Positions 14,859-60,800 of a stretch of DNA of 64,000 nt are shown here, piece after piece. A model generated the notes under the pieces. That model searched no databases. It was not told the origin of the DNA and worked only from the letters and a program-made list of their open reading frames with translations. The position numbers and the translations under genes are program-made. Positions within the stretch are counted from its first letter, which is position 1, and the number at the start of each line of letters is the position of its first letter. Source of the stretch: Neolewinella xylanilytica (lineage in GTDB: Bacteria; Bacteroidota; Bacteroidia; Chitinophagales; Saprospiraceae); NCBI RefSeq assembly GCF_002934605.1, contig NZ_PTJC01000007.1:186001-250000 (forward strand), in the 5' to 3' direction.

Positions 14859-16538
14859 ATGCTCAAGCAGTTATTACTCTTTTTCGTGGTACTCACTTGT
14901 ATCAATGTATATGGGCAGGATATGCCTGCCAGTACGGAAATGCCCGAAAGTGCTTATCCGTGGGAATTCGGTCTCAAATTGGGAGGAACTTCCATGGGAG
15001 GCGATCTCAACGACAATAGTTTCCCGCTCATCGATCAGATCAGCCCCGCCGGAGGTATCTACCTGCGTCGCCGCCTTGGCAACGTGATCGCGCTGCGCCT
15101 CCAGCTGATGTACGGTTTTCTGCAGAACAATACGGACAAAGCCGACGACGCCGAGCTCACCGCCCTGGATGCTTCGATCGAGACGACGGTCTTCGAGCCC
15201 AGCCTGAGCTTCGACATCGAGCCCTTCTTCGCTAGCCGTTTTAACGACGACTATACCTTTAAGCCCGGCTTTTCTCCCTACATCAGCGCCGGTGTCGGCT
15301 ACGGTCTGTGGGGCGACGATGAAGCTGAGTACGGTGCAGGCACCAGTGCCGTCCAAACCGACATCAACACGGACATCGAGGATCGCGCCGACGAAAGCGG
15401 TGGGCTCGTGATTCCCGTAGGTGTAGGTCTTCGTTACTACTTCTCCCCGAAATCCTCGCTCGGGCTGGACTATCGCTTCCGGTTCTCTAGCTCCGACCTG
15501 ATCGACGGTGTCTCCGCCGCTTACGGTGATCCGGAAGAGAACGATCAGTACGCATTTCTCGGCCTGACCTACTCGGTCGGGTTCGGAGCCCGCGATGCTG
15601 ACGGCGACGGCGTGAAAGACATGGAAGATGCATGTCCTACCGAAGCCGGCCCCGCCGCTACTAACGGTTGCCCCGATTCCGACGGTGACGGCGTTGCCGA
15701 CCGCGACGACGAGTGCCCCAATGAAGCCGGTGTTGCTAACCTGAACGGTTGCCCCGACGGTGACAGCGATGGCGTAGCTGACAAAGACGACGATTGTCCT
15801 ACCGAACCGGGTACTGCTGCCACGAACGGTTGCCCCGATGGCGACGGTGACGGTGTTGCCGATAAAGACGACGAGTGCCCCAACGAAGCCGGACTGGCGA
15901 GCCTGAACGGCTGTCCCGATGGTGACGGTGACGGTGTGGCCGACAAAGACGACGAATGCCCCGCCGAAGCAGGCCCCGCGGCTACCAATGGTTGCCCCGA
16001 CCGCGACGGTGACGGTATCGCCGACAAAGACGACGAATGTCCCGATGAAGCCGGTGTTGCCGAGCGTAACGGTTGCCCCGTTCCCAACGACCGCCCCGAG
16101 AACCTCGAAGAGCGGATTGCCCGCTACGGCCAGCTGCTCGAAGGTCAAGACTTCCAGCACATCCGGATCGACAGCATCAACGGTACGATCGAAATCGATC
16201 GGATTTACTTCCCCACCGATATCTCTAGCCTGAACCGCCCCGATCGCATGGTCCTGGAAGAAATCGATCGCTTCCTTGCCCTCGATGGTGCTTCGGACTT
16301 CGATATCCGTTTCGAAGGTCACGCTGACCGCCGTGCTTCCGACGAATACAACCAGGCACTCTCCGAGCGTCGCGCCAGTTCCGCCATGGAGTACACTGCC
16401 GACCAGGAAGGCGCTAAGGCCGAAAACCTGACCATGATCGGATTCGGTGAAAACCAACCGGTGGGTAACACCCTCCGCGAGAACCGCGTAGTTATCCCGG
16501 TTGCTACCGAGCCTACCCGCATGATTGAACTGGACTAA
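14859..16538 (+). CDS. OmpA-family outer membrane protein with thrombospondin type 3 repeats
   Basis: 559 residues. Signal peptide 1-20; residues 30-245 look like an eight-stranded barrel (alternating strands, GVGYGLWG, VGVGLRYYFSP, LGLTYSVGFGARD). Residues 247-410 hold six calcium-binding TSP3 repeats of the form DGDGVADKDDECP...NGCPD. Residues 430-559 are an OmpA-type peptidoglycan-binding domain (IRFEGHADRRASDEYNQALS) whose final stretch NRVVIPV departs from the usual NRRVE. It should tie the outer membrane to the cell wall. A structured leader precedes it and a strong terminator follows. Confidence 0.9.
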   Translation: MLKQLLLFFVVLTCINVYGQDMPASTEMPESAYPWEFGLKLGGTSMGGDLNDNSFPLIDQISPAGGIYLRRRLGNVIALRLQLMYGFLQNNTDKADDAELTALDASIETTVFEPSLSFDIEPFFASRFNDDYTFKPGFSPYISAGVGYGLWGDDEAEYGAGTSAVQTDINTDIEDRADESGGLVIPVGVGLRYYFSPKSSLGLDYRFRFSSSDLIDGVSAAYGDPEENDQYAFLGLTYSVGFGARDADGDGVKDMEDACPTEAGPAATNGCPDSDGDGVADRDDECPNEAGVANLNGCPDGDSDGVADKDDDCPTEPGTAATNGCPDGDGDGVADKDDECPNEAGLASLNGCPDGDGDGVADKDDECPAEAGPAATNGCPDRDGDGIADKDDECPDEAGVAERNGCPVPNDRPENLEERIARYGQLLEGQDFQHIRIDSINGTIEIDRIYFPTDISSLNRPDRMVLEEIDRFLALDGASDFDIRFEGHADRRASDEYNQALSERRASSAMEYTADQEGAKAENLTMIGFGENQPVGNTLRENRVVIPVATEPTRMIELD

Positions 16539-34930: not shown

Positions 34931-34934
34931 GGTA

Positions 34935-34977
34935 GCCATTCTCGTCTGCCGAGCTCTGCTCGTCCGCCGAGAATGGC
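34935..34977. repeat. Nested inverted repeat sharing 11-mers with the 43.6 kb array
   Basis: GCCATTCTCG and CGAGAATGGC (34935-34944, 34968-34977) form an outer 10-bp stem. Between them, on the minus strand, TCGGCGGACGA and TCGGCAGACGA occur as direct copies. The same pair occurs in every unit of the tandem array at 43.55-44.61 kb. Confidence 0.55.
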
Positions 34978-34997
34978 CGGGGATTTTCGTATCCGGA

Positions 34998-38924: not shown

Positions 38925-41900
38925 ATGAAACACCTTTACTTTGTCTTATTCTTCCTGATTTCCGGAGCGGGCGGCCTCTTCGCCCAAGCTGACAAAACGA
39001 TCGACGTCGGCTATGAGGATGATATGGGTCGCCAATTCACCACATCCCTCTTCTATTACGGTGAACCAATTAATGGGAAATATCCGTATTGGGATGGGGC
39101 CAACCTTATAGCCGTTTTCGAAACTGATAGATGGGTTTTGAATTCTCCTGGGGGTGATTACTTCTTTTCGGAAGTAATTTCTGGAGACTACCCACCTGAC
39201 TTGGCAACCGGGAATTGGAAACCCATAAAGATGGGATACGTGCTTACCAAATTTGGGGGTAGCGGTACCATTGAGGGTACCCTGACCCTAGCCCTCGACC
39301 TACAGGTAACCCAAAACGTAGCCTGTTTCGGCACAGCTACCGGTGAGCTTATGGGCACGGTAAGCAACGGCACCTCGCCCTACAGCTTTACCTATACGTT
39401 AGATGGGCAGCCCGCCGGTAGCGGGAGCACCAGTGAAGCGACGGAAACCCTGAGCGGGGTACCGGCGGGTACCTATGCGGTTACCGTTACGGATGCCAAC
39501 AGTCAGACCGCCTCGGCTACGGTTACCATCAATCAGCCAGCACAGCCACTGGACGTAGAGCCTACGGAGAAGACCGACGTAGCTTGCTTCGGTGCCGCTA
39601 CCGGAAGTGCCGCCGCCGTCGGAAAAGGAGGGACGTCCCCCTACACCTATGCATGGTCGAATGGCGCCACCAGCACCAGCATTTCGAACCTCGTGAAGGG
39701 AACCTACACCGTCACCGTCACCGACGCGAATAACTGTACGGCTACGCGAGATTTCACGATCAAGCAGCCGAATAATCCTGTGAAACTAACGGTCACTGCT
39801 TCGGAGGTCAGCTGCAACGGTGGCAGCAATGGCACGGCAAGCGTCGTAGCTAAAGACGGCACGGGACCCTACACCTATCTATGGTCGACCGGCGCTACTA
39901 CGGCCAGCCTTACCGGTCTTTCGGCCGGTGCCTACGGCCTGACCGTAACCGATGCCAACGGCTGTGTGGCCATGACTTCGGCCACGGTTACCCAGCCCAC
40001 GGCCCTTTCGGTTTTCCCGATGAGCCAGACCAACATCGGATGCAATGGAGATGCCACCGGCGCCTTCAGCGTTACCGCCCAAGGCGGCACGACTCCCTAC
40101 ACCTACCTGTGGTCGAACGGCTCCACGATGGACAATCTTTCCGGTGTTAAGGCGGGCGCTTACAGCCTGACCGTGACGGATGCGAACGGCTGCACCGCTA
40201 CGACTTCAACCACGATCACCCAGCCGACGGCCCTGCTCGCCAACCTGCGGAGCCAGACCAACGTCGCCTGTAACGGAGATGACAGCGGTTCGGCCACCGT
40301 AGAGGCTAATGGCGGCATGGTACCCTACACCTACGCTTGGTCGAACGGCGCGGTGACGGCTGAAGCCACCGGACTTTCGGCGGGTAGCTATACGGTGACC
40401 GTCACGGACGATTACGGCTGTACGGCCACCGCATCCGTTACGATCACGGAACCGACTCTGCTGACCGCCTCCGCTACGGCGACGGACGTCAGCTGCAACG
40501 GCGGTAGCAACGGCGCGATTGACCTCACGGTGAGCGGCGGAACGGCCCCGTACACCTACGCATGGAACAACACGGCCACGACCGAAGACTTGAACGACCA
40601 GTCGCCCGGCACCTACAACGTGACCGTCACGGACGCCAACGGCTGCACGGCTACGGCTACGGCAACGATCACCGAGCCTACGGTAGTAACGGCCTCCATT
40701 CAGAGCCAGACCAACGTGAGCTGCAACGGCGGTAGCGATGGCGCGGTCGACCTGCTGGTAAGCGGTGGATCGGCTCCCTACACCTTCGTCTGGTCCAATA
40801 CGGCCACGACCGAAGACCTGACCAACCAGTCGGCCGGCACCTACGGCGTGACCGTCACGGACGCCAACGGCTGTACGGCTACGACCTCGGCTACCGTCAC
40901 CGAACTTCCCGCCATCGATGTGAGCGTTGAATTTACCAATGCCACCTGTAATGGTTCCGCCACCGGAACTGCCTCCGCTTCGGCAACTGGCGGTACGGGC
41001 TCCTTCACCTACGAGTGGACCAACGATAACGATCCCTGCACCATCCTGGGCAAATCCACCGGAAAGTGCGAACCCTTCGTGCTGATCGGTGAGGAAGTCA
41101 CCGGCTTGCCGGCGGGGGCCTACACGCTGCGCGCGATCGATGGAAACGGCTGTGTAGCTACGGAATCCTTTACCATTTCCGAGCCCACCGCGCTGGTAGC
41201 CGAAATCGACACCAAGGAAGACGTAACCTGCAACGGCGGGAACGACGGAGCGGCTGCGATTCAGGTTAGCGGCGGCACGGCCCCCTATACTTACGCCTGG
41301 AGCAACGGTGCTACCGAAGCTAACCTGACGAACGTCAAAGGCGGAACCTACAACGTCATCGTAACGGATGCGAATGGTTGCACCGCCAGTCTCGCGATAA
41401 CGATCAACCAGGCTAGCACGCTCAGCGCCGTGGCCTTCGTAGAGAACAACGCCAGCTGTAGCGGTAAGGCCGACGGAAGTGCCATAGTCAACGGCGTCCG
41501 GGGTAAACCTGGTGATTCGGAAGATTTCACTTACGCCTGGACCGTCGGTTCGGAAACAATCACGGGCGATATCCTCGCTAACGTACCCGCCGGCACCTAC
41601 TCCGTCACCGTGACCGATGGCGTGGGCTGTACCGCCTCGACCGAGGTGACCATCACCGAACCGATTGTACTGACCTCCTCCCCGTCCCAGACCGACGTGA
41701 CCTGCAATGGCGCAACTAACGGCACCGCGACCGTCAGCCTGGATGGTGGCACCGCCCCCTACACCTACGTTTGGTCCAACGGTGCGACTACCGCTACGAC
41801 CACCGAACTGGCCGCCGGCATCTACAACGTAACGGCAACCGATAAGAACGGCTGTTTCACCACGAACGCCGTGACCATCACCGAGCCCACTATGCTGGCC

Positions 41901-42946: not shown

Positions 42947-43549
42947 ATGCAGCAACTCCGCTATCCCATCACCTTCACCTTCAAGGTCGCCACCCTGGCC
43001 AACGACTTCACGGCTACGGATGCCACGGGCCAGGTAGTCGCCTACGTACGGCAGAAGATGCTCAAGTTCAAGGAGGATATCCAGATTTACAGCGACGAAA
43101 GCCGCAGCCGGGTGGTATACAACATCCGCGCCGACCGCTGGCTCGACTGGTCCGCCGCTTATGCCTTTTCCGACGAGGGCGGCCGGGAGTTCGGGAAGGT
43201 AGCCCGCAAGGGCTGGCGCTCGCTCTGGAAAGCGGAATACGAGATCGTCGACCAGCACGACCAGGGGCAGTACACCATCCGGGAAGAAAACGGCTGGGTC
43301 AAGGTGCTGGACGGACTGGTGGGCGAGATCCCCGTGCTGGGCTACTTCACCGGTTACTTTCTTAATCCGACCTACGTGGTCACCGACCGCCGCGGCCGGG
43401 AAGTGGCCCGCCTGAGCAAGGAAGCCTCCTTTCTGGGCCGGAAGTTCGTGGTGGAGAAGCTCGTCCCCTTTGACGGAGGCAACGACGATGACGACCGCGT
43501 GATGCTCGGCTTGATGATGATGATCCTGCTGGAGCGGCGGCGGGGGTAG
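42947..43549 (+). CDS. LURP-one-related (tubby-like) protein
   Basis: 200 residues of alternating strands: YVRQKMLKFKEDIQIYSDE, AYAFSDEGGREFGKVARKG, YTIREENGWVKVLDG, YVVTDRRGREVARLSKEAS. This matches the twelve-stranded tubby/scramblase-like fold of the LURP-one-related family, of unknown function in bacteria. The C-terminus ends in a Met-rich hydrophobic stretch (MLGLMMMILLE) and a basic tail. No signal peptide. Its stop lies at the left boundary of the tandem repeat array. Confidence 0.65.
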   Translation: MQQLRYPITFTFKVATLANDFTATDATGQVVAYVRQKMLKFKEDIQIYSDESRSRVVYNIRADRWLDWSAAYAFSDEGGREFGKVARKGWRSLWKAEYEIVDQHDQGQYTIREENGWVKVLDGLVGEIPVLGYFTGYFLNPTYVVTDRRGREVARLSKEASFLGRKFVVEKLVPFDGGNDDDDRVMLGLMMMILLERRRG

Positions 43550-44616
43550 GGGCCTTGGCCCGCCCAGCGCTGGCTGGTCTGGCGGGTACTATATCGAGGG
43601 TAGTTTCGATCCACGTCGGCAGACGAACTCCGCTTCGCTGCGTTCGGCGGACGACGTTGGTGAGCCCTGGTCCGCCCAGCGCTAGCTGGTCTGGCGGGTA
43701 CTATATCGAGGGTAGTTTCGATCCACGTCGGCAGACGAACTCCGCTTCGCTACGTTCGGCGGACGACGTTGGTAAGGCCTGGTCCGCCCAGCGCTAGCTG
43801 GTCTGGCGGGTACTATATCGAAGGTAGTTTCGATCCACGTCGGCAGACGAACTCCGCTTCGCTACGTTCGGCGGACGACGTTGGTAAGCCCTGGTTTGCC
43901 CAGCGCTAGCTGGTCTGGCGGGTATTATATCGAGGGTAGTTTCGATCCACGTCGGCAGACGAACTCCGCTTCGCTGCGTTCGGCGGACGACGTTGGTGAG
44001 CCCTGGTCCGCCCAGCGCTAGCTGGTCTGGCGGGTACTATATCGAGGGTAGTTTCGATCCACGTCGGCAGACGAACTCCGCTTCGCTACGTTCGGCGGAC
44101 GACGTTGGTAAGGCCTGGTCCGCCCAGCGCTAGCTGGTCTGGCGGGTACTATATCGAGGGTAGTTTCGATCCACGTCGGCAGACGAACTTCGCTTTGTTG
44201 CGTTCGGCGGACGACGTTGGTGAGGCCCTGGTCCGCCCAGCGCTAGCTGGTCTGCCCAGGGTGCTCTATAGCGGGTGCTTTTAATCCACGTCGGCAGACG
44301 AACTTCGCTTTGCTGCGTTCGGCGGACGACGTTGGTGAGCCCTGGTCCGCCCAGCGCTAGCTGGTCTGCCCAGGGTGCTCTATAGCGGGTGCTTTTAATC
44401 CACGTCGGCAGACGAACTTCGCTTTGCTGCGTTCGGCGGACGACGTTGGTGAGCCCTGGTCCGCCCAGCGCTAGCTGGTCTGCCCAGGGTGCTCTATAGC
44501 GGGTGCTTTTAATCCACGTCGGCAGACGAACTTCGCTTTGCTGCGTTCGGCGGACGACGTTAGTATCCACGTCGGCAGACGAACTCCGCTTCGCTACGTT
44601 TGGCGGACGACGTTAG
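43550..44616. repeat. Tandem array of a 112-115 bp structured unit
   Basis: Ten copies of a CCACGTCGGCAGACGAAC core occur at 43611, 43723, 43835, 43947, 44059, 44171, 44286, 44400, 44514 and 44567. Spacings are 112 bp (five times), then 115, 114 and 114, and finally 53 for a truncated copy. Each unit has a hairpin CCAGC-GCTA-GCTGG with flanking CCGCC/GGCGG, and two direct 11-mers, TCGGCAGACGA and TCGGCGGACGA. The first six units and the last three differ in the segment before the core (GGCGGGTACTATATCGAGGG against CCCAGGGTGCTCTATAGCGG). The array fills the whole gap between two convergent genes; the stop of the leftward gene lies in its last copy. Confidence 0.9.
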
Positions 44617-45536
44617 CTCTTTCCCATCATCTTCTTGATGCCCGCCCCCGCGGCCACCAGGGCGATCATCACCAGCTTCCAACCCTTGAGCAGGAAGATA
44701 CCGATACTGGCCAGCAGACCGGTTTTGGCCAGCACCTTGCCGGCTACCAGGGCGGCAATGCCGTAGCCGGCTACCTCGTCGATGCCGGGGCTAAAATCGG
44801 CGTAGCGGTGGCCTTCGTTGTAGGCCACGCTGGCCAGGATGCCATCCAGGTTTTCGTTGACGCGGGGCAGGTCGGAAATGCCGCCAATGACGTTCATCGT
44901 CAGGTAGCCACGGCGGCCCAGGAAGCGGACGTTGTAGTTTAGGGTATTGCCTTCCTCGCCTTCGAAGTACAGTTCCTTGGCCCAGTGCAGCCGCTTATTC
45001 ACCGCGTCGTAGCTCGGCGCTTGTGCCCAGCCGATGAGTTCGATGGTTTGGTAACCGGCTTCGGCGCGGGCTTCGTTTTCGGTCGCCATATCGTCCCGCA
45101 TCTGGTCGAGCAGATCAGCATAGTCGATATCGGCGGCGTCGGCATCGTCGACGTAGCCGTCCTCGGTGAAGTAAATGTGGATACCGTAACAGGCGTCGTC
45201 CAGCACGGACAGGCTATCGGGAAACAGCATCCCGTACGAACCGTCGGCGATGCCGGGCATGTTCCCCCATAGGTCGACCAGCACCGTCTCCGCATCCGCC
45301 GCGTTCACGTAGCGATAGCCCGCCGGAATGGCCAGCGCGGCCAGGTTATCACCCAATTGAACGGTCGTATCGGCGAGGAAAGTAAGGGTCGACTCGATGC
45401 TGTCCGTGTGCCGCTGATAAGCAAGCATCATGGAATCGATGGACGTGACGGCTTCGGTAGAGCCAACTTCCTGGGCGTTGGTAGAAGCGGGGAGCAGCAA
45501 CATCGCGCACGTGGCCAGGTACAGTAAATTCTTCAT
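44613..45536 (-). CDS. DUF2167 family membrane protein
   Basis: 307 residues. Signal peptide (MKNLLYLATCAMLLLPASTNAQ), then a long extracytoplasmic domain with the family's strings VQLGDNLAALAIPAGYRYVNA, LLDQMRDDM, YDAVNKRLHWAKEL and NYNVRFLGRRGYLTMNVIGG, and two hydrophobic segments near the C-terminus (GYGIAALVAGKVLAKTGLLA, GWKLVMIALVAAGAG). The family is widespread but uncharacterised, with an inner-membrane location likely. Its stop codon lies inside the terminal copy of the tandem array. Confidence 0.8.
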   Translation of the reverse strand: MKNLLYLATCAMLLLPASTNAQEVGSTEAVTSIDSMMLAYQRHTDSIESTLTFLADTTVQLGDNLAALAIPAGYRYVNAADAETVLVDLWGNMPGIADGSYGMLFPDSLSVLDDACYGIHIYFTEDGYVDDADAADIDYADLLDQMRDDMATENEARAEAGYQTIELIGWAQAPSYDAVNKRLHWAKELYFEGEEGNTLNYNVRFLGRRGYLTMNVIGGISDLPRVNENLDGILASVAYNEGHRYADFSPGIDEVAGYGIAALVAGKVLAKTGLLASIGIFLLKGWKLVMIALVAAGAGIKKMMGKS

Positions 45537-45836: not shown

Positions 45837-47567
45837 ATGAAACGAATCTGCGCACGCTTCGCCGCCGGCCTGCTGCTGGGGGTGCTTACTGCCTGTACCA
45901 GCGGACAAACGCCGAGTACCGCGACGGTCAGTGCCGGCGGGGTCGAGCCCGAATGGTGGAAGGAGATTATCGTCTACCAGATCTACCCCCGCAGCTTTCA
46001 GGATACCGACGGAGACGGAGTCGGCGACCTGAACGGCATCATCGAGCGGCTGGACTACATCGAAAGCCTCGGCGTTAGCGCGGTGTGGCTCAATCCGATC
46101 TACGCATCCCCCAACGACGATAACGGCTACGACGTCAGCGACTACCGCGACATCATGGCCGATTTCGGGACGATGGCCGACTTCGACCGGCTGCTGGTGG
46201 GCATGCACGAACGGGATATTAAGCTTATCATGGATATCGTGGTCAACCACAGCAGCGACGAGCATCCCTGGTTTCAGTCGGCCCGATCGAGCCGCGACAG
46301 CCCCTACCGCGATTATTATCACTGGTGGCCCGCCGAGCGGGGAAAACCCAACCACCGCTACAGTCTCTTCGACTCGGAGGGGGATGCCTGGAAGTACGAC
46401 TCGACCACCAACAGCTACTACCTGCACTATTTCGCCGAAGGGCAACCCGACCTGAACTGGGAGAACCCCGAACTGCGGCGGGAAGTGTACGACATCCTGC
46501 GGTTCTGGGCCGAGAAGGGCGTGGACGGATTCCGGTTGGATGCCTTCCAGTTTGCCGCCAAGGATACCACCTTCCCGAAATTTCCGGACGACCTGGACGA
46601 GAACTTCATGCAGTATTACGCCATGCAGGACGGCCTGCACGACTATCTGCGGGAGATGAACGCCGAAGTCCTGAGCCGGTACGAGGTAATGAGCGTGGCC
46701 GAGGGAGCGGGCCGCAACTTCCGGGAGGCCCACGAACTGGTGGACGCCGACCGCAACGAATTGGATATGGCCTACGCCTTCGACGGGGTGGACATCCCGA
46801 AATACGGCGGCTACGCACTGACGACGATGAAGGAAGTTTTCAGCCGCTGGGATGCGGAGTTCGCCGAAAAGGGCTGGCTGTCCATCTTCCTGAGTAACCA
46901 CGACCAAGCACGCATGGTAAGTCGCTGGGGAAATGATCGCCCCGCGTACCGCGCCGCCTCCGCCAAGTTGCTAAATACCTTCCTACTGAGCATGCGGGGA
47001 ACCCCCTATGCCTACTACGGCGACGAGCTGGGGATGACCAACATCGACTTCGACGCGATCGAGGACTACCAGGATATTGCCGCGATCAACGGCTACAAAA
47101 GGGCCCAGTCGCAGGGGCGGGACATGGATCAATTCCTCGAAGAACTCAACTTCACCTCCCGCGACAACGGTCGTACGCCGATGCAGTGGAGTGACTCGAC
47201 CTACGCGGGGTTCTCCAGCGCCGCGCCCTGGCTGCCGGTCAACGACAACTTCGAATCCGTAAATGTGCGGGCCGAGGACGCCGACCCGGAATCGGTACTG
47301 AACCACTTCCGCCGCATGACGGCCCTACGCAATGAGAACAAGGTGCTGGTCTACGGCGACTACGAGCTGCTGCTTCCCGATCACGAGCAGGTGTACGCCT
47401 ACACCCGCACGCTGGGGGAGGAGCAAATGCTGGTATTGCTCAACTTCTCATCGGAAACGGTGACGATCGAACTGCCGCAGCTGGAGCAACTGACTGAGGT
47501 TGCCATCAACAACTACCCGGCTTTTACCGGCGAATTGGCGCCGTGGCAAGCGGTGGTCCTGCAGTAA
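45837..47567 (+). CDS. GH13 alpha-glucosidase/alpha-amylase lipoprotein
   Basis: 576 residues from the ATG at 45837, with a lipoprotein signal (GVLTAC). The barrel shows the GH13 regions: DIVVNHSSDEHPW, GFRLDAFQF (Asp nucleophile), VMSVAEGAG (Glu acid/base) and LSNHDQAR (transition-state Asp). The QIYPRSFQDTDGDGVGDLNGI opening and RTPMQW motif fit oligo-1,6-glucosidase or alpha-glucosidase subfamilies rather than endo-amylases. It is expected in the periplasm or on the outer membrane, releasing glucose from alpha-glucans or oligosaccharides. The Sus pair follows 1.5 kb downstream. The residues after Cys (TSGQ) lack the acidic surface-export pattern, which favours the periplasm. Confidence 0.92.
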   Translation: MKRICARFAAGLLLGVLTACTSGQTPSTATVSAGGVEPEWWKEIIVYQIYPRSFQDTDGDGVGDLNGIIERLDYIESLGVSAVWLNPIYASPNDDNGYDVSDYRDIMADFGTMADFDRLLVGMHERDIKLIMDIVVNHSSDEHPWFQSARSSRDSPYRDYYHWWPAERGKPNHRYSLFDSEGDAWKYDSTTNSYYLHYFAEGQPDLNWENPELRREVYDILRFWAEKGVDGFRLDAFQFAAKDTTFPKFPDDLDENFMQYYAMQDGLHDYLREMNAEVLSRYEVMSVAEGAGRNFREAHELVDADRNELDMAYAFDGVDIPKYGGYALTTMKEVFSRWDAEFAEKGWLSIFLSNHDQARMVSRWGNDRPAYRAASAKLLNTFLLSMRGTPYAYYGDELGMTNIDFDAIEDYQDIAAINGYKRAQSQGRDMDQFLEELNFTSRDNGRTPMQWSDSTYAGFSSAAPWLPVNDNFESVNVRAEDADPESVLNHFRRMTALRNENKVLVYGDYELLLPDHEQVYAYTRTLGEEQMLVLLNFSSETVTIELPQLEQLTEVAINNYPAFTGELAPWQAVVLQ

Positions 47568-47570
47568 AAC

Positions 47571-47612
47571 GCTGCCTTCCGGTAGCGCGAGCAAAATGCG
47601 GTCTCCGACCGC
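47571..47612. repeat. Short palindromes with TCC loop
   Basis: GCTGCC-ttcc-GGTAGC (47571-47586) and GCGGTC-tcc-GACCGC (47598-47612) lie between two convergent genes. The second is the exact reverse complement of the palindrome at 57827-57841. Confidence 0.6.
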
Positions 47613-47627
47613 GCTGGAAATAGCCGC

Positions 47628-48797: not shown

Positions 48798-48847
48798 ACC
48801 GGTGAAGATCGGCGTAAACGGGCAATACGCCACCGCCCCAGTAAAAC

Positions 48848-48899
48848 GCTGCCTCCCCGATAGCTATCGGGGCGCAAGTACAATGCTGCCTCCGGCAGC
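48848..48899. repeat. Palindrome cluster upstream of susC
   Basis: CCCCGATAGCTATCGGGG (48855-48872, perfect 18-bp palindrome) and GCTGCC-tcc-GGCAGC (48885-48899). The first is identical to 57766-57783, about 9 kb away. Confidence 0.65.
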
Positions 48900-48964
48900 G
48901 CCCCGGCAAACCAGAATTCACCTAAACTTAATAACACCCGCAGTGGGGCATGCCTCCGGCACCC

Positions 48965-57765: not shown

Positions 57766-57868
57766 CCCCGATAGCTATCGGGGGAAACCGGGTTTTACTG
57801 CGCAGCCGGAGGCTGCTTCCTACTTCGCGGTCGGAGACCGCATTCTACTGCCGCTGCCGGGAGGCAGC
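57766..57868. repeat. Array of short palindromes downstream of the BNR gene
   Basis: CCCCGATAGCTATCGGGG (57766-57783), GCAGCC-gga-GGCTGC (57802-57816), GCGGTC-gga-GACCGC (57827-57841) and GCTGCC-ggga-GGCAGC (57853-57868). The last ends 3 bp from the stop of the 1096-residue gene. The 57583-57765 part of the gap shows nothing recognisable. Confidence 0.65.
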
Positions 57869-57871
57869 ATC

Positions 57872-60800
57872 CTACTCGCGGGACCAGTCGGGCCAGCGGC
57901 CGGGCGTGTAGGGGGCCCCGCCCGCTTCCAAATCCTGCTCTAGGTCACGGACGTCGGCATCGATGGCTTTGAGCTCGTCCAGGAGGGGCGCGAACTGTTC
58001 CGCTGCCACGCGGTAGCTTTCCTTGAAGGTCTCGGTGGGGTCGGAGGTCACGTTCCACATACCGTATTCGATGCTGCCGATGCGGCCGGCCACCGAGGGT
58101 AGGGTCTCCATTTCGAGCGAGCTGCGGGTACGGTCGCCGTAGAGTTTGGTGGTGAAGTCGGCAAGACGGTCGCGAAGATCGTATAGGGTGGTGAGGGCGG
58201 CTTCCGGGCTACCGGTGGTCTCCAGTGCGGCCGTTTCCAGGGCCTCCAGGCGGTCGCTGAGGTTGCCGCGAATGTCGGCGGCGGCGCTGAGAGCCTTGCT
58301 GAGGTCCATCACGTCGCGGACGAAGGCGTCGTACTCATTCCAGTCTTCCGTGGGCAAAGTAGCCTGATCGAGGTACTTGACGCGGAAGGCGACCGGCTCG
58401 GCCAGCTCGGTGAGTTCCCCGTCGAAGAATTGACTCATGGCGACGGTGTAGTTACCCGGAGGCACGAGAGGTCCCGCGGAGGCGCTGCCGAAGAGCTGAT
58501 CGGGTGCCGGGGTGTAGCGACGATTGACCGGGTCCGCAGGGGGATAGCGCAGGTCCCAGTGGAAACGGCTCATTCCTGCGCTCGCCGCCCGCTTAATTTG
58601 CCGGACGACTTCGCCCGCCTCGTTGCGGATGGTGAAGAGGAGGTAGGGGTCCTGCTGCCGCTGCTCGAGGCGGAAGGAGTCGACGCTGGGGTAGTAGACG
58701 GATTCCTTGCGGTCCATGATCTCGCGCTCGCGCTCCTGGCGGAGTTCCTTGATTGTTTTCGGCTTTTCCTTGACGTAGTAGGTGAAGGCGGCGCCGAAGG
58801 GCGGGTTATCGGAGCGGAAGTAGCTGCTGCCGAGGTGGCCCTTGTCGCGGAGGCCGAGCGGCGCGCGCTCCACGTAGAGCCAGGGGTCGCGGGTGGGCAT
58901 GAGGACGGCCTCTTCCTCGAAGGTCTGCTCGTCGATATTGCGCAGGCTGCTGTAGTCGTCCAGGACGTAGAAGCCGCGGCCGAAGGTGGCAATCACCACG
59001 TCGTTCTCACCGCGCTGGATCTCGATGTCGCGCACGGCTATGGTGGGCAGACCACTGCCGAGCTCGACCCAGTTTTCGCCGCCGTCGGGGGAGAAGTAGG
59101 CGCCGAACTCGGTACCGCAGAAGAGCAGGTTGGGATCCTCATGGTCCTCGGCGATGGTGTAGACGCTACCGCGCTCGGGGAGGGTACCGGCGATGTTGGT
59201 CCAGGTGGCGCCGCCGTCGCTGGTTTTGAGCAGGTATGGCTTGAAGTCGCCGTATTTATGGTTGTTGTAGGCGACGTAGGCCACGTCGCGGTCGTGGAGA
59301 CCGGCGATGACCTGGTTGACGTAGCTCATGTCGGGAATGCCGGTGAGGTTATCGTAGGCTTCCCAACTGTCGCCGCCGTCCGTGGTCTTGTGCAGCAGGC
59401 CGTCGTCGGTACCGACCCAGAGCAGGTTCTCGTCCAGGGCGCTTTCGGCGATGGTGGTCGTCTGTCCGAAGATGGAAGTGGAGCCGTTCTTGGCGATGGC
59501 GTCGACGCTCCAGACCTGGTCCATGACGGGCAGGGTATTGCGGTCCACGCCGCGACTGAGGTCGGGGCTGATTACCCGCCAGCTGTTGCCGCGGTCGTCG
59601 GTGCGGAAGACCTTATTAGCGCCGTAGTACAGGCGCGTCGGCTGGTGGCTGCTGATGGTCAGCGGCGCATCCCAGTTCCAGCGCAGCGGCTCGTCGTCGG
59701 GGCCTTCGGTGGGCTGAATGAACAGGTACTCGCCGCTGCGGCGGTCGAAGCGGCGCAGGCTGCCGTACTGCGCCTGGGCGTAGATGATGTTCGGGTCGGT
59801 GGGATCTACCTGCGATTCGAAGCCGTCGCCGGTGCTGGTGATGTACCAGTCGGCGTTCACGATGCCGTTGATGCTGGTATTCTTATTGGGGCCTCCCAGA
59901 CTGAGGTTATCCTGGGTACCGCCGTGGACGTGGTAGAAGGGCCCGGACTGGTCGGTAGCCACCTTATAGAACTGCGTGACCGGGAGGTTTTCCTTGAAGT
60001 GCCAGGTACCGGCGAAATCCCAGGTTTCGTAGATGCCGCCGTCGCATCCGACGATGAGGTGGTCGGTATCGGCGGGGTCGATCCAGATGGCGTGGTTGTC
60101 GATGTGCTTGTTGAGCTCGCCGAGATTGCGGACGGTCTTGCCGCCGTCGTCGCTGACTTTGTAGTAGGTATCGGTGATGAAGATGCGGTCCACGTTGACG
60201 GGGTCGCAGGTCAGCTCCTGGTAGTAATTGCCGCTGGTGAAGGTGCCGCTCTGCTTGCTCCAGCTGGCGCCGCCGTTGTCGCTGCGGTAGATGCCGCCCT
60301 TGCCGTCGGGGGCTTCGACTACGGCGTACACCACATCGGGGTTGACGGGGGATACGTCGATGCCGATGCGCCCGAGGTCACCGCCGGGCAGTCCACCCTT
60401 GAGCTGGTTCCAGGTGGCGCCGCCGTCGGTGGTCTTGTAGAGACCGGATTCCGGTCCGCCGCCGAGGTAGGTGTACACCTTGCGCTGCCGCTGGTGGAAG
60501 GCGGCGTAGAGCACGTTGGGGTCGCGGGGGTCCATGCGCAGGTCGTTGCAGCCGGTGTATTCGCTGATCTGCTTGCTGGCTTCCCAGGTCTCGCCGCCGT
60601 CGGTGGATTTGTAGACGCCGCGGTCACCGCCGTTGCTCCAGACGGGGCCGTAGGCGGCTACCCATACGATGTCGGAATCAGTGGGGTCGACAATCACGTT
60701 AGCGATGTGCTCGCTCTCCTTCAGCCCCATATTCTTCCACGACTTCCCTCCGTCGGTGGATTTGTAGACCCCGTCGCCGTAGCCTACGGAGCGCTGGTTT

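What the first reader, a model, noticed from the sequence alone, without database searches (positions are those of the whole stretch)
43550..44616. Tandem array of 112-115 bp structured units with higher-order duplication
Ten copies of the core occur with near-constant spacing and no variable spacers. Small differences show how it grew. Units 1 and 2 match units 4 and 5 at the variable sites (TGCG/GTGAGCCC, then TACG/GTAAGGCC), consistent with a three-unit (336 bp) block duplication; units 7-9 are a second subtype with 114-115 bp spacing. Each unit contains a hairpin (CCAGC-GCTA-GCTGG) and two direct 11-mers, so it may be a REP-like element, a multi-terminator between convergent genes, or a protein-binding array. 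It fills the entire gap.
Basis: seen in the sequence. Interest (0 to 1): 0.75.

Follow-up and report, generated by a model that had tools for sequence, protein, structure and literature searches.

The report
Amplified REP hairpin array in Lewinella
The repeated DNA between two genes looks like a locally multiplied pair of small hairpin elements (a REP family) that is scattered through this bacterium and also flanks a hard-to-recognise, probably matching, transposase gene.

Summary
The array is real: ten B hairpins and nine A hairpins alternate and fill the gap between two convergent genes. A and B share one grammar, read on opposite strands: outer stem P1, GTCYGCC, inner stem P2, short loop, P2', GTCYGCC, P1'. 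Stems vary with compensating changes; the heptamers stay fixed and face each other with mismatches at positions 2, 4 and 6 (2 and 6 in relatives). A covariance model finds 102 matches in this genome, 78 in Lewinella sp. IMCC34191, 1-10 in five other same-genus genomes and none in fourteen. On the contig examined in full all copies are extragenic; near genes the foot side faces the gene end, often with the TAG stop codon inside the foot. A divergent REP-associated transposase without a significant Pfam match is flanked by these elements here and in three relatives that form one clade; six related transposases outside it lack complete elements. The congener has the same gap with one A element and one collapsed B, so the array grew locally. 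I read it as a new REP family and the array as a BIME/REPIN-like tandem cluster. A terminator role is not supported; protein binding and transposition were not tested.

The parts
42947..43549 (+). left flanking gene, 200 aa, no Pfam or NCBIfam match at E 0.01; its stop TAG (43547-43549) lies just before the first A element
43550..44616 (.). tandem array: nine A-B units plus one extra B, filling the gap
43554..43581 (+). A element, unit 1 (left heptamer altered, right heptamer truncated)
43666..43693 (+). A element, unit 2 (right heptamer truncated)
43778..43805 (+). A element, unit 3 (right heptamer truncated)
43890..43917 (+). A element, unit 4 (left heptamer altered, right heptamer truncated); placed by eye
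44002..44029 (+). A element, unit 5 (right heptamer truncated)
44114..44141 (+). A element, unit 6 (right heptamer truncated)
44226..44261 (+). A element, unit 7, intact: P1 CCCTG, GTCCGCC, P2 CAGC, loop, GCTG, GTCTGCC, CAGGG
44340..44375 (+). A element, unit 8, intact
44454..44489 (+). A element, unit 9, intact
43613..43657 (-). B element 1 (GTCYGCC strand is minus, foot to the right)
43725..43769 (-). B element 2
43837..43881 (-). B element 3
43949..43993 (-). B element 4
44061..44105 (-). B element 5
44173..44217 (-). B element 6
44288..44332 (-). B element 7
44402..44446 (-). B element 8
44516..44560 (-). B element 9
44569..44613 (-). B element 10; its foot (minus strand CTAA) contains the stop codon of the right gene
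44613..45536 (-). right flanking gene, 307 aa, DUF2167 (PF09935, E 3.7e-82)
34934..34978 (+). solitary member of the same family in the window: foot GTAG, about 10 bp P1 (AGCCATTCTC/GAGAATGGCC, one G-T or mismatch at its outer end), GTCTGCC and GTCCGCC

Best explanation
The array is a BIME/REPIN-like tandem cluster of a new REP (repetitive extragenic palindrome) family. Its unit is an inverted pair of two elements, A (plus strand) and B (minus strand), with feet pointing outward towards the two convergent genes. Each element is an imperfect hairpin: foot (mostly YA or YAG), variable outer stem P1, heptamer GTCYGCC, inner stem P2 (mostly GAGC, CAGC or GAAC), short loop, then the second halves. 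The two heptamers are same-sense, so they oppose each other with fixed mismatches. Mechanism, partly inferred: a divergent RAYT encoded on contig C1 (G000 C1:1123211-1123789, minus strand), itself flanked by these elements, recognises the folded single strand by the mismatched heptamers, and new copies are placed 3' of a YAG/TAG target, which is why TAG stop codons often sit in the foot. After two elements had settled at this gap, the pair was multiplied in place by tandem duplication (unequal exchange or replication slippage). Shown: grammar, dispersal, covariation, extragenic and 3'-end placement, RAYT association, growth relative to a congener. Inferred: RAYT activity, strand choice, target rule, duplication mechanism.
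For: Own genome: 134 exact heptamer pairs against 21 for the reversed pattern; 102 covariance-model matches. Covariation on 18 copies chosen for diversity: 97.4% of cells paired against 80.4% shuffled, 44 double-change cells against 16.8, covariation score 0.450 against 0.143, each with 0 of 500 shuffles as high; the three mismatch positions pair in 0 of 54 cells. A scan of 400 kb for the pairing pattern alone, naming no sequence, returns 22 hairpins; 20 carry these heptamers, 13 in the array and 7 elsewhere. On contig C3 29 of 29 rows (14 in the array, 15 outside) are extragenic with coding fraction 0.85. Stop codons within 60 nt: 45 genes on the foot side, 7 on the tail side; TAG in 31 of 45 against 92 of 256 C3 genes; where the stop starts within 3 nt of P1, TAG in 15 of 16. 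RAYT flanked by the family in 4 of 4 members of its clade (G000, G017, G010, G009; support 0.961) and complete elements in 0 of 6 related RAYTs outside it. The syntenic gap in G001 holds one A and a collapsed B.
Against: Two of the five covariation measures do not exceed shuffles (pairs with a double change 6 against 5.2, 188 of 500 as high; further pair types 13 against 11.0, 63 of 500). The foot is not the canonical GTAG: YA precedes P1 in 53 of 79 short-P1 elements. G001 has 78 matches, but in what I held of it the best relative of this RAYT is only 29% identical; its NCBIfam search is of borderline sensitivity, since the 58%-identical G010 protein scored only E 0.001, so absence is not shown. 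The RAYT scores below the NCBIfam cut-off (43.6 of 80 bits) and has no significant Pfam match. A RAYT outside the clade (G011, L398) has single heptamers near both ends (GTCCGCC and GGCGGAC), so the clade boundary is not sharp. In nine orthologous comparisons printed I found no empty site with exact ends. In G001 the A element has the opposite orientation.
Confidence: 0.85

Rival explanations
1. The elements act mainly as RNA: 3'-end hairpins of messages (terminators or exonuclease stops), multiplied to insulate two convergent genes.
For: They sit at gene 3' ends in a preferred orientation (45 against 7 genes) and here between convergent genes.
Against: One terminator-like site against 1.4 expected. 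RNA folding of units and cores is within the shuffle range in five of six cases (one minus-strand unit has z -2.25). With RNA parameters the two strands are about equally stable (56 against 53 of 110). Selection for RNA 3' ends does not by itself predict TAG inside the foot or elements around a RAYT.
Confidence: 0.08
2. A DNA-level binding array (gyrase, IHF or a chromosome-organising protein), with the copy number itself selected, as proposed for E. coli BIMEs.
For: Regular 112-114 bp spacing, inverted pairs, convergent genes; gyrase targeting of E. coli REPs is reported (PMC3733652, passage seen).
Against: Nothing here tests binding. Stems vary widely, which favours recognition of the folded strand, and arrays at other loci have other periods (56 to 308 bp).
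Confidence: 0.15
3. The array is an assembly artefact of a shorter locus.
For: Not excluded; no reads available.
Against: Units differ at defined sites and the arrangement is ordered. TRF finds arrays at 10 of 12 other element loci chosen in this genome.
Confidence: 0.03

Closest known systems
GTAG-tagged REPs (Di Nocera et al. 2013, PMC3733652; abstract, outline, section 6 and passages seen)
   Same: Short extragenic palindromes with an unpaired foot, dimers, tandem clusters, placement at gene ends; GTAG termini 'often provide' a TAG stop codon to flanking ORFs.
   Different: Here the foot is mostly CTA, TTA, CCA or TCA before P1. The conserved blocks are same-sense heptamers in both arms with fixed mismatches, and the stems vary. 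No paper of the held library has both 'Lewinella' and 'repetitive extragenic palindromic'.
E. coli BIME (Y/Z REP pairs) and Pseudomonas REPIN tandem clusters (PMC8266576, PMC3116915; passages seen)
   Same: Inverted REPs in tandem clusters including flanking sequence; E. coli REPs have conserved stem mismatches (a bulge) needed for TnpAREP activity.
   Different: Two or three separated single mismatches at heptamer positions 2, 4, 6 instead of one bulge; nine units in one array here.
REPtrons of TnpAREP/RAYT classes (PMC6006769; passages seen)
   Same: HuH (HFH) and Y motif (YIHYNP) with REPs flanking the gene; Bacteroidetes subclass 2.6 is said there to have atypical flanking structures.
   Different: This RAYT has THFH, GSLFR where a W motif is expected, YIHYNP, 192 aa. 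It could not be placed in a subclass here. From the motif table I guess it is nearer to 2.1, for which that paper found no REP, than to 2.6. The words Lewinella and Saprospir* do not occur in that paper's main text.

Membership tests
REP (repetitive extragenic palindrome) | short imperfect palindrome of about 20-45 nt | tested here: met
   cores with P1 and P2 stems, about 35-45 nt
REP (repetitive extragenic palindrome) | high copy number, dispersed | tested here: met
   102 model matches in G000, 78 in G001
REP (repetitive extragenic palindrome) | extragenic | tested here: met
   29 of 29 rows on C3 outside genes predicted by my own codon model, 15 of them outside the array; other contigs not scored this way
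REP (repetitive extragenic palindrome) | GTAG (or CGTC) foot | tested here: inconclusive
   YA before P1 in 53 of 79 short-P1 elements; commonest CTA 18, TTA 12, CCA 11, TCA 8; GTAG is a minority
REPtron (REP with cognate RAYT) | RAYT gene flanked by the same REPs | tested here: met
   G000 L052, G017 L401, G010 L400 on both sides; G009 L399 on one side by the scan, on the other only by eye with a damaged heptamer
REPtron (REP with cognate RAYT) | RAYT binds and cleaves its REP as single-stranded DNA | not testable with these tools
   no biochemistry
BIME/REPIN tandem cluster | inverted REP pairs repeated in tandem with their linkers | tested here: met
   nine A(+)-B(-) units plus one B; six of the nine A are damaged
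REP families of the genome's other RAYTs (L064, L065) | same hairpin as those flanking these RAYTs | tested here: not met
   their flanks carry GCTGCC/GGCAGC or GTAGCGACGGCTTCAGCCGTC hairpins; no GGCRGAC heptamer occurs in the 5 kb of L064 or of L065
intrinsic terminator | stem-loop followed by a T run | tested here: not met
   one site in 43300-44900 against 1.4 expected
Rfam RNA families | match at the gathering score | tested here: not met
   0 matches in the window

The most novel reading that the evidence does not exclude
A REP family recognised by shape plus a same-sense heptamer placed in both arms: the outer stem carries no fixed sequence, and strand identity is written only in two to three single mismatches. 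The outer stem would be rebuilt at each locus (up to 12 bp, locus-specific, and changed on both arms at an orthologous site) by copying one arm onto the other through hairpin-primed synthesis, while the RAYT keeps the heptamer mismatches from being corrected. A divergent RAYT clade without a significant Pfam match has co-evolved with it, the centre pair switching between a mismatch (G000, G001) and a Watson-Crick pair (G017).
Probability: 0.25. Interest if true: 0.65.

Novelty: new variant of a known kind. Interest (0 to 1): 0.48.

Why it matters
It would give a Bacteroidetes REPtron with a compact, readable recognition code (fixed mismatched heptamers, variable stems) and a RAYT that Pfam misses. 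It also gives species whose elements differ at the centre position of that code. RAYT-REP co-evolution and recognition of folded single-stranded DNA could be tested with few oligonucleotides, and the window shows how a REP pair grows into a regular array.

Tried and rejected
Pfam PF01797 in the own genome found an IS200-like remnant and two RAYTs with other REPs, so I first thought the family had no cognate transposase; the NCBIfam RAYT profile corrected this. 'One arm A, the other G' at heptamer position 4 (106 of 110 structured unique copies, four with G twice) looked like an A/G code. Several relatives carry GGCGGAC with GGCCGAC, so I now read it as one arm GGCGGAC and the other GGCAGAC or GGCCGAC; exceptions exist (G010 L341 has GTCCGCC twice; TGCGGAC and TGCCGAC arms in G000). 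Stable DNA loops (cGNAg, cGNNAg; recalled, no paper seen) were considered as a sign of a single-stranded DNA form, but the heptamers favour the other strand (DNA parameters: GGCRGAC strand more stable in 109 of 110), so the active strand stays open; a literature search for such loops gave nothing useful. The reversed-sequence control is uninformative, because a reversed hairpin is still a hairpin. One search used a mistyped structure; one search replaces it. Six rows flagged as junctions between neighbouring elements were left out of the 116 unique copies behind, but not out; one of the six (C1:813537) looks like a true element. In one search G015 (103 against 42), G005 (77 against 40) and G010 (39 against 19) are above control and were not followed up; most of the others are near or below it.

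Full report
The observation. The array at 43550-44616 is real and as described. Tandem Repeats Finder reports 9.0 copies of a 112-bp unit at 95% match, and a 53-bp duplication at its right end. The B core occurs exactly ten times. Units 2 and 5 are identical, units 1 and 4 differ at 2 of 112 sites, and units 7 and 8 are identical over 114 bp. The gap lies between a plus-strand gene ending at 43549 and a minus-strand gene ending at 44613. The left protein has no Pfam or NCBIfam match at E 0.01; the right one is DUF2167.

What the unit is. Each unit holds two hairpins, A and B. Read on the strand that shows GTCYGCC (plus for A, minus for B) both have one grammar: outer stem P1, GTCYGCC, inner stem P2, loop, P2', GTCYGCC, P1'. 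The heptamer is not palindromic: the same sense sequence stands in both arms. Its positions 1, 3, 5 and 7 pair across the hairpin while 2, 4 and 6 oppose each other as T.C or C.T (on the other strand G.A). In the array three A copies are intact and six have a truncated right heptamer, while all ten B copies keep both heptamers.

Dispersal. In the own genome (5.38 Mb) the pattern GGCRGACN{6,36}GGCRGAC has 134 matches against 21 for the reversed pattern. Among 20 same-genus genomes only G001 stands far above its control (107 against 31; next is G017 with 26 against 7, whose listed hits look mostly unstructured). A scan of genome contigs (84,980 species by the tool's description) with a narrower pattern returned 34 stretches, 32 from Lewinella sp. 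IMCC34191 and two from unrelated metagenome bins; the window's own genome may be left out there. Equal contig lengths identify G001 with that strain. A covariance model from 18 short-loop copies found 102 matches in G000, 78 in G001, 10 in G008, 5 in G017, 3 in G011, 1 each in G009 and G010, and none in 14 others, of 21 genomes searched; at most 150 candidates per genome were scored.

Constraint. On the 18 aligned copies, chosen for diversity, 97.4% of pair cells form a standard pair, 44 cells show changes on both sides against 16.8 in shuffles, and the covariation score is 0.450 against 0.143, each with 0 of 500 shuffles as high; two further measures do not exceed shuffles (188 and 63 of 500). 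The three mismatch positions form a standard pair in 0 of 54 cells. In 152 unique exact heptamer pairs taken without regard to stems, P1 positions 1-3 pair in 89.5-92.8% and P2 positions 1-4 in 87.5-91.4%. These loci were mostly chosen because they carried the heptamers, except contig C3. A scan of C3 that specifies only the pairing pattern found 22 hairpins, 20 of them with these heptamers: 13 in the array and 7 elsewhere. Of 110 structured unique copies 106 have one arm GGCGGAC and the other GGCAGAC, and four have GGCGGAC twice. Members in G017, G008, G011 and G009 show GGCGGAC with GGCCGAC, so that the centre is a Watson-Crick pair there and the mismatches at 2 and 6 remain; other members in G008 and G011 have the GGCAGAC form, and the one in G010 has GTCCGCC twice. 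With GGCS in place of GGCR G017 has 335 matches against 29 in the control.

Position and orientation. On C3 (400 kb, 85% coding by a simple codon model of my own) 29 of 29 rows are extragenic; 14 of them are the array, one of these a junction between neighbours. Over the fetched loci of G000 and G001 the stop codon of a predicted reading frame lies within 60 nt on the foot side for 45 genes and on the tail side for 7. The stop is TAG in 31 of 45 against 92 of 256 C3 genes (a baseline from G000 only), and TAG in 15 of the 16 cases where it starts within 3 nt of P1. The last B of the window array carries the stop codon of the right gene in its foot, and so does the collapsed B in G001. That GTAG REPs often provide TAG stop codons is already in print (PMC3733652, passage seen). 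The foot here is looser: YA precedes P1 in 53 of 79 short-P1 elements, and GGRT follows P1' in 53 of 79.

Cognate enzyme. The NCBIfam RAYT profile found a gene missed by Pfam Y1_Tnp. It is 192 aa with MPTHFHLQ and YIHYNPVKAGLV (HuH and Y motifs by my reading). Its only solved-structure match at E up to 1 is TnpArep 4er8 (E 5.9e-4, residues 138-165). It lies at L052 2712-3290, minus strand, with family elements on both sides, and its own TAG stop is the foot of the next, partly decayed, element. Homologues in G017 (63.5% identity), G010 (58%) and G009 (56%) also have GTCNGCC hairpins at their borders; for G009 one by the scan and a damaged one by eye. The four form a clade with support 0.961 in a ten-sequence FastTree; the six others, at 40-49% identity, have no complete element within 900 bp by the same scan, though the G011 gene has one single heptamer near each end. 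The two other RAYTs examined first in this genome have their own, different REPs.

Growth of the array. G001 has the same two genes with a gap holding one A (11-bp P1) and a B reduced to one heptamer between its P1 arms, as expected from deletion between the two direct heptamers. So the locus probably held elements before the array grew. TRF finds arrays with periods of 56 to 308 bp at 10 of 12 other element loci of G000 chosen for it; units were not compared systematically between loci, but their linkers and stems differ. This speaks for local duplication rather than repeated insertion. At the orthologous site C3:318566 / G001 C1:28601 three neighbouring P1 pairs differ on both arms (CTTTTTG/CAAAAA against CTCCCTG/CAGGGAG). 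In the nine orthologous comparisons printed there was no clean empty site with exact ends.

Other readings. A terminator role is not supported. RNA parameters favour neither strand, and DNA parameters favour the GGCRGAC strand in 109 of 110, while the foot defines the other strand, so the active strand is open. A gyrase or other protein-binding role was not testable. Searches of the held library for Lewinella with REPs and for REPs and RAYTs with Bacteroidetes listed no paper whose title or abstract start points to this family; the papers listed were only read in passages or not at all, and subscription journals are largely missing there.

Noticed in passing
window 47563-47616, 48836-48902, 57780-57881: Another short REP-like family (GCTGCC-TCC-GGCAGC hairpins and variants), with many related copies in G017; the same hairpins flank the RAYT of L064, so that is probably its enzyme.
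   Followed up: partly
L065 1764-3546 (G000 C1:1076500-1081500): A RAYT flanked by paired GTAG REPs (GTAGC-GACGGCTTCAGCCGTC and GTAGC-GTCCACTTCAGTGGAC), so the genome holds at least three REP/RAYT systems.
   Followed up: partly
L404 (G000 C2:1201500-1206500), L402 (G000 C3:363500-369500), L395, L396, L397: Further RAYTs of the same subfamily, some with other hairpins nearby (for example ACCGTCCAACG/CGTTGGACGGT at L395), suggesting RAYT-REP co-evolution. L395 and L404 have no significant Pfam match; the others were not scanned.
   Followed up: partly
G017 (for example C1:8844-9081, C3:100135-100701): A sister family with GGCGGAC/GGCCGAC is more expanded there (335 pattern matches against 29), with dense clusters.
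   Followed up: partly
window 15632-16080 and 39853-40903: Tandem repeats of 81/162 bp and 228 bp; the latter lie in a 1289-aa reading frame.
   Followed up: no
L211 (G001 C43:394000-402500): Arrays of about 223- and 232-bp units that overlap elements of the same family in the congener.
   Followed up: no
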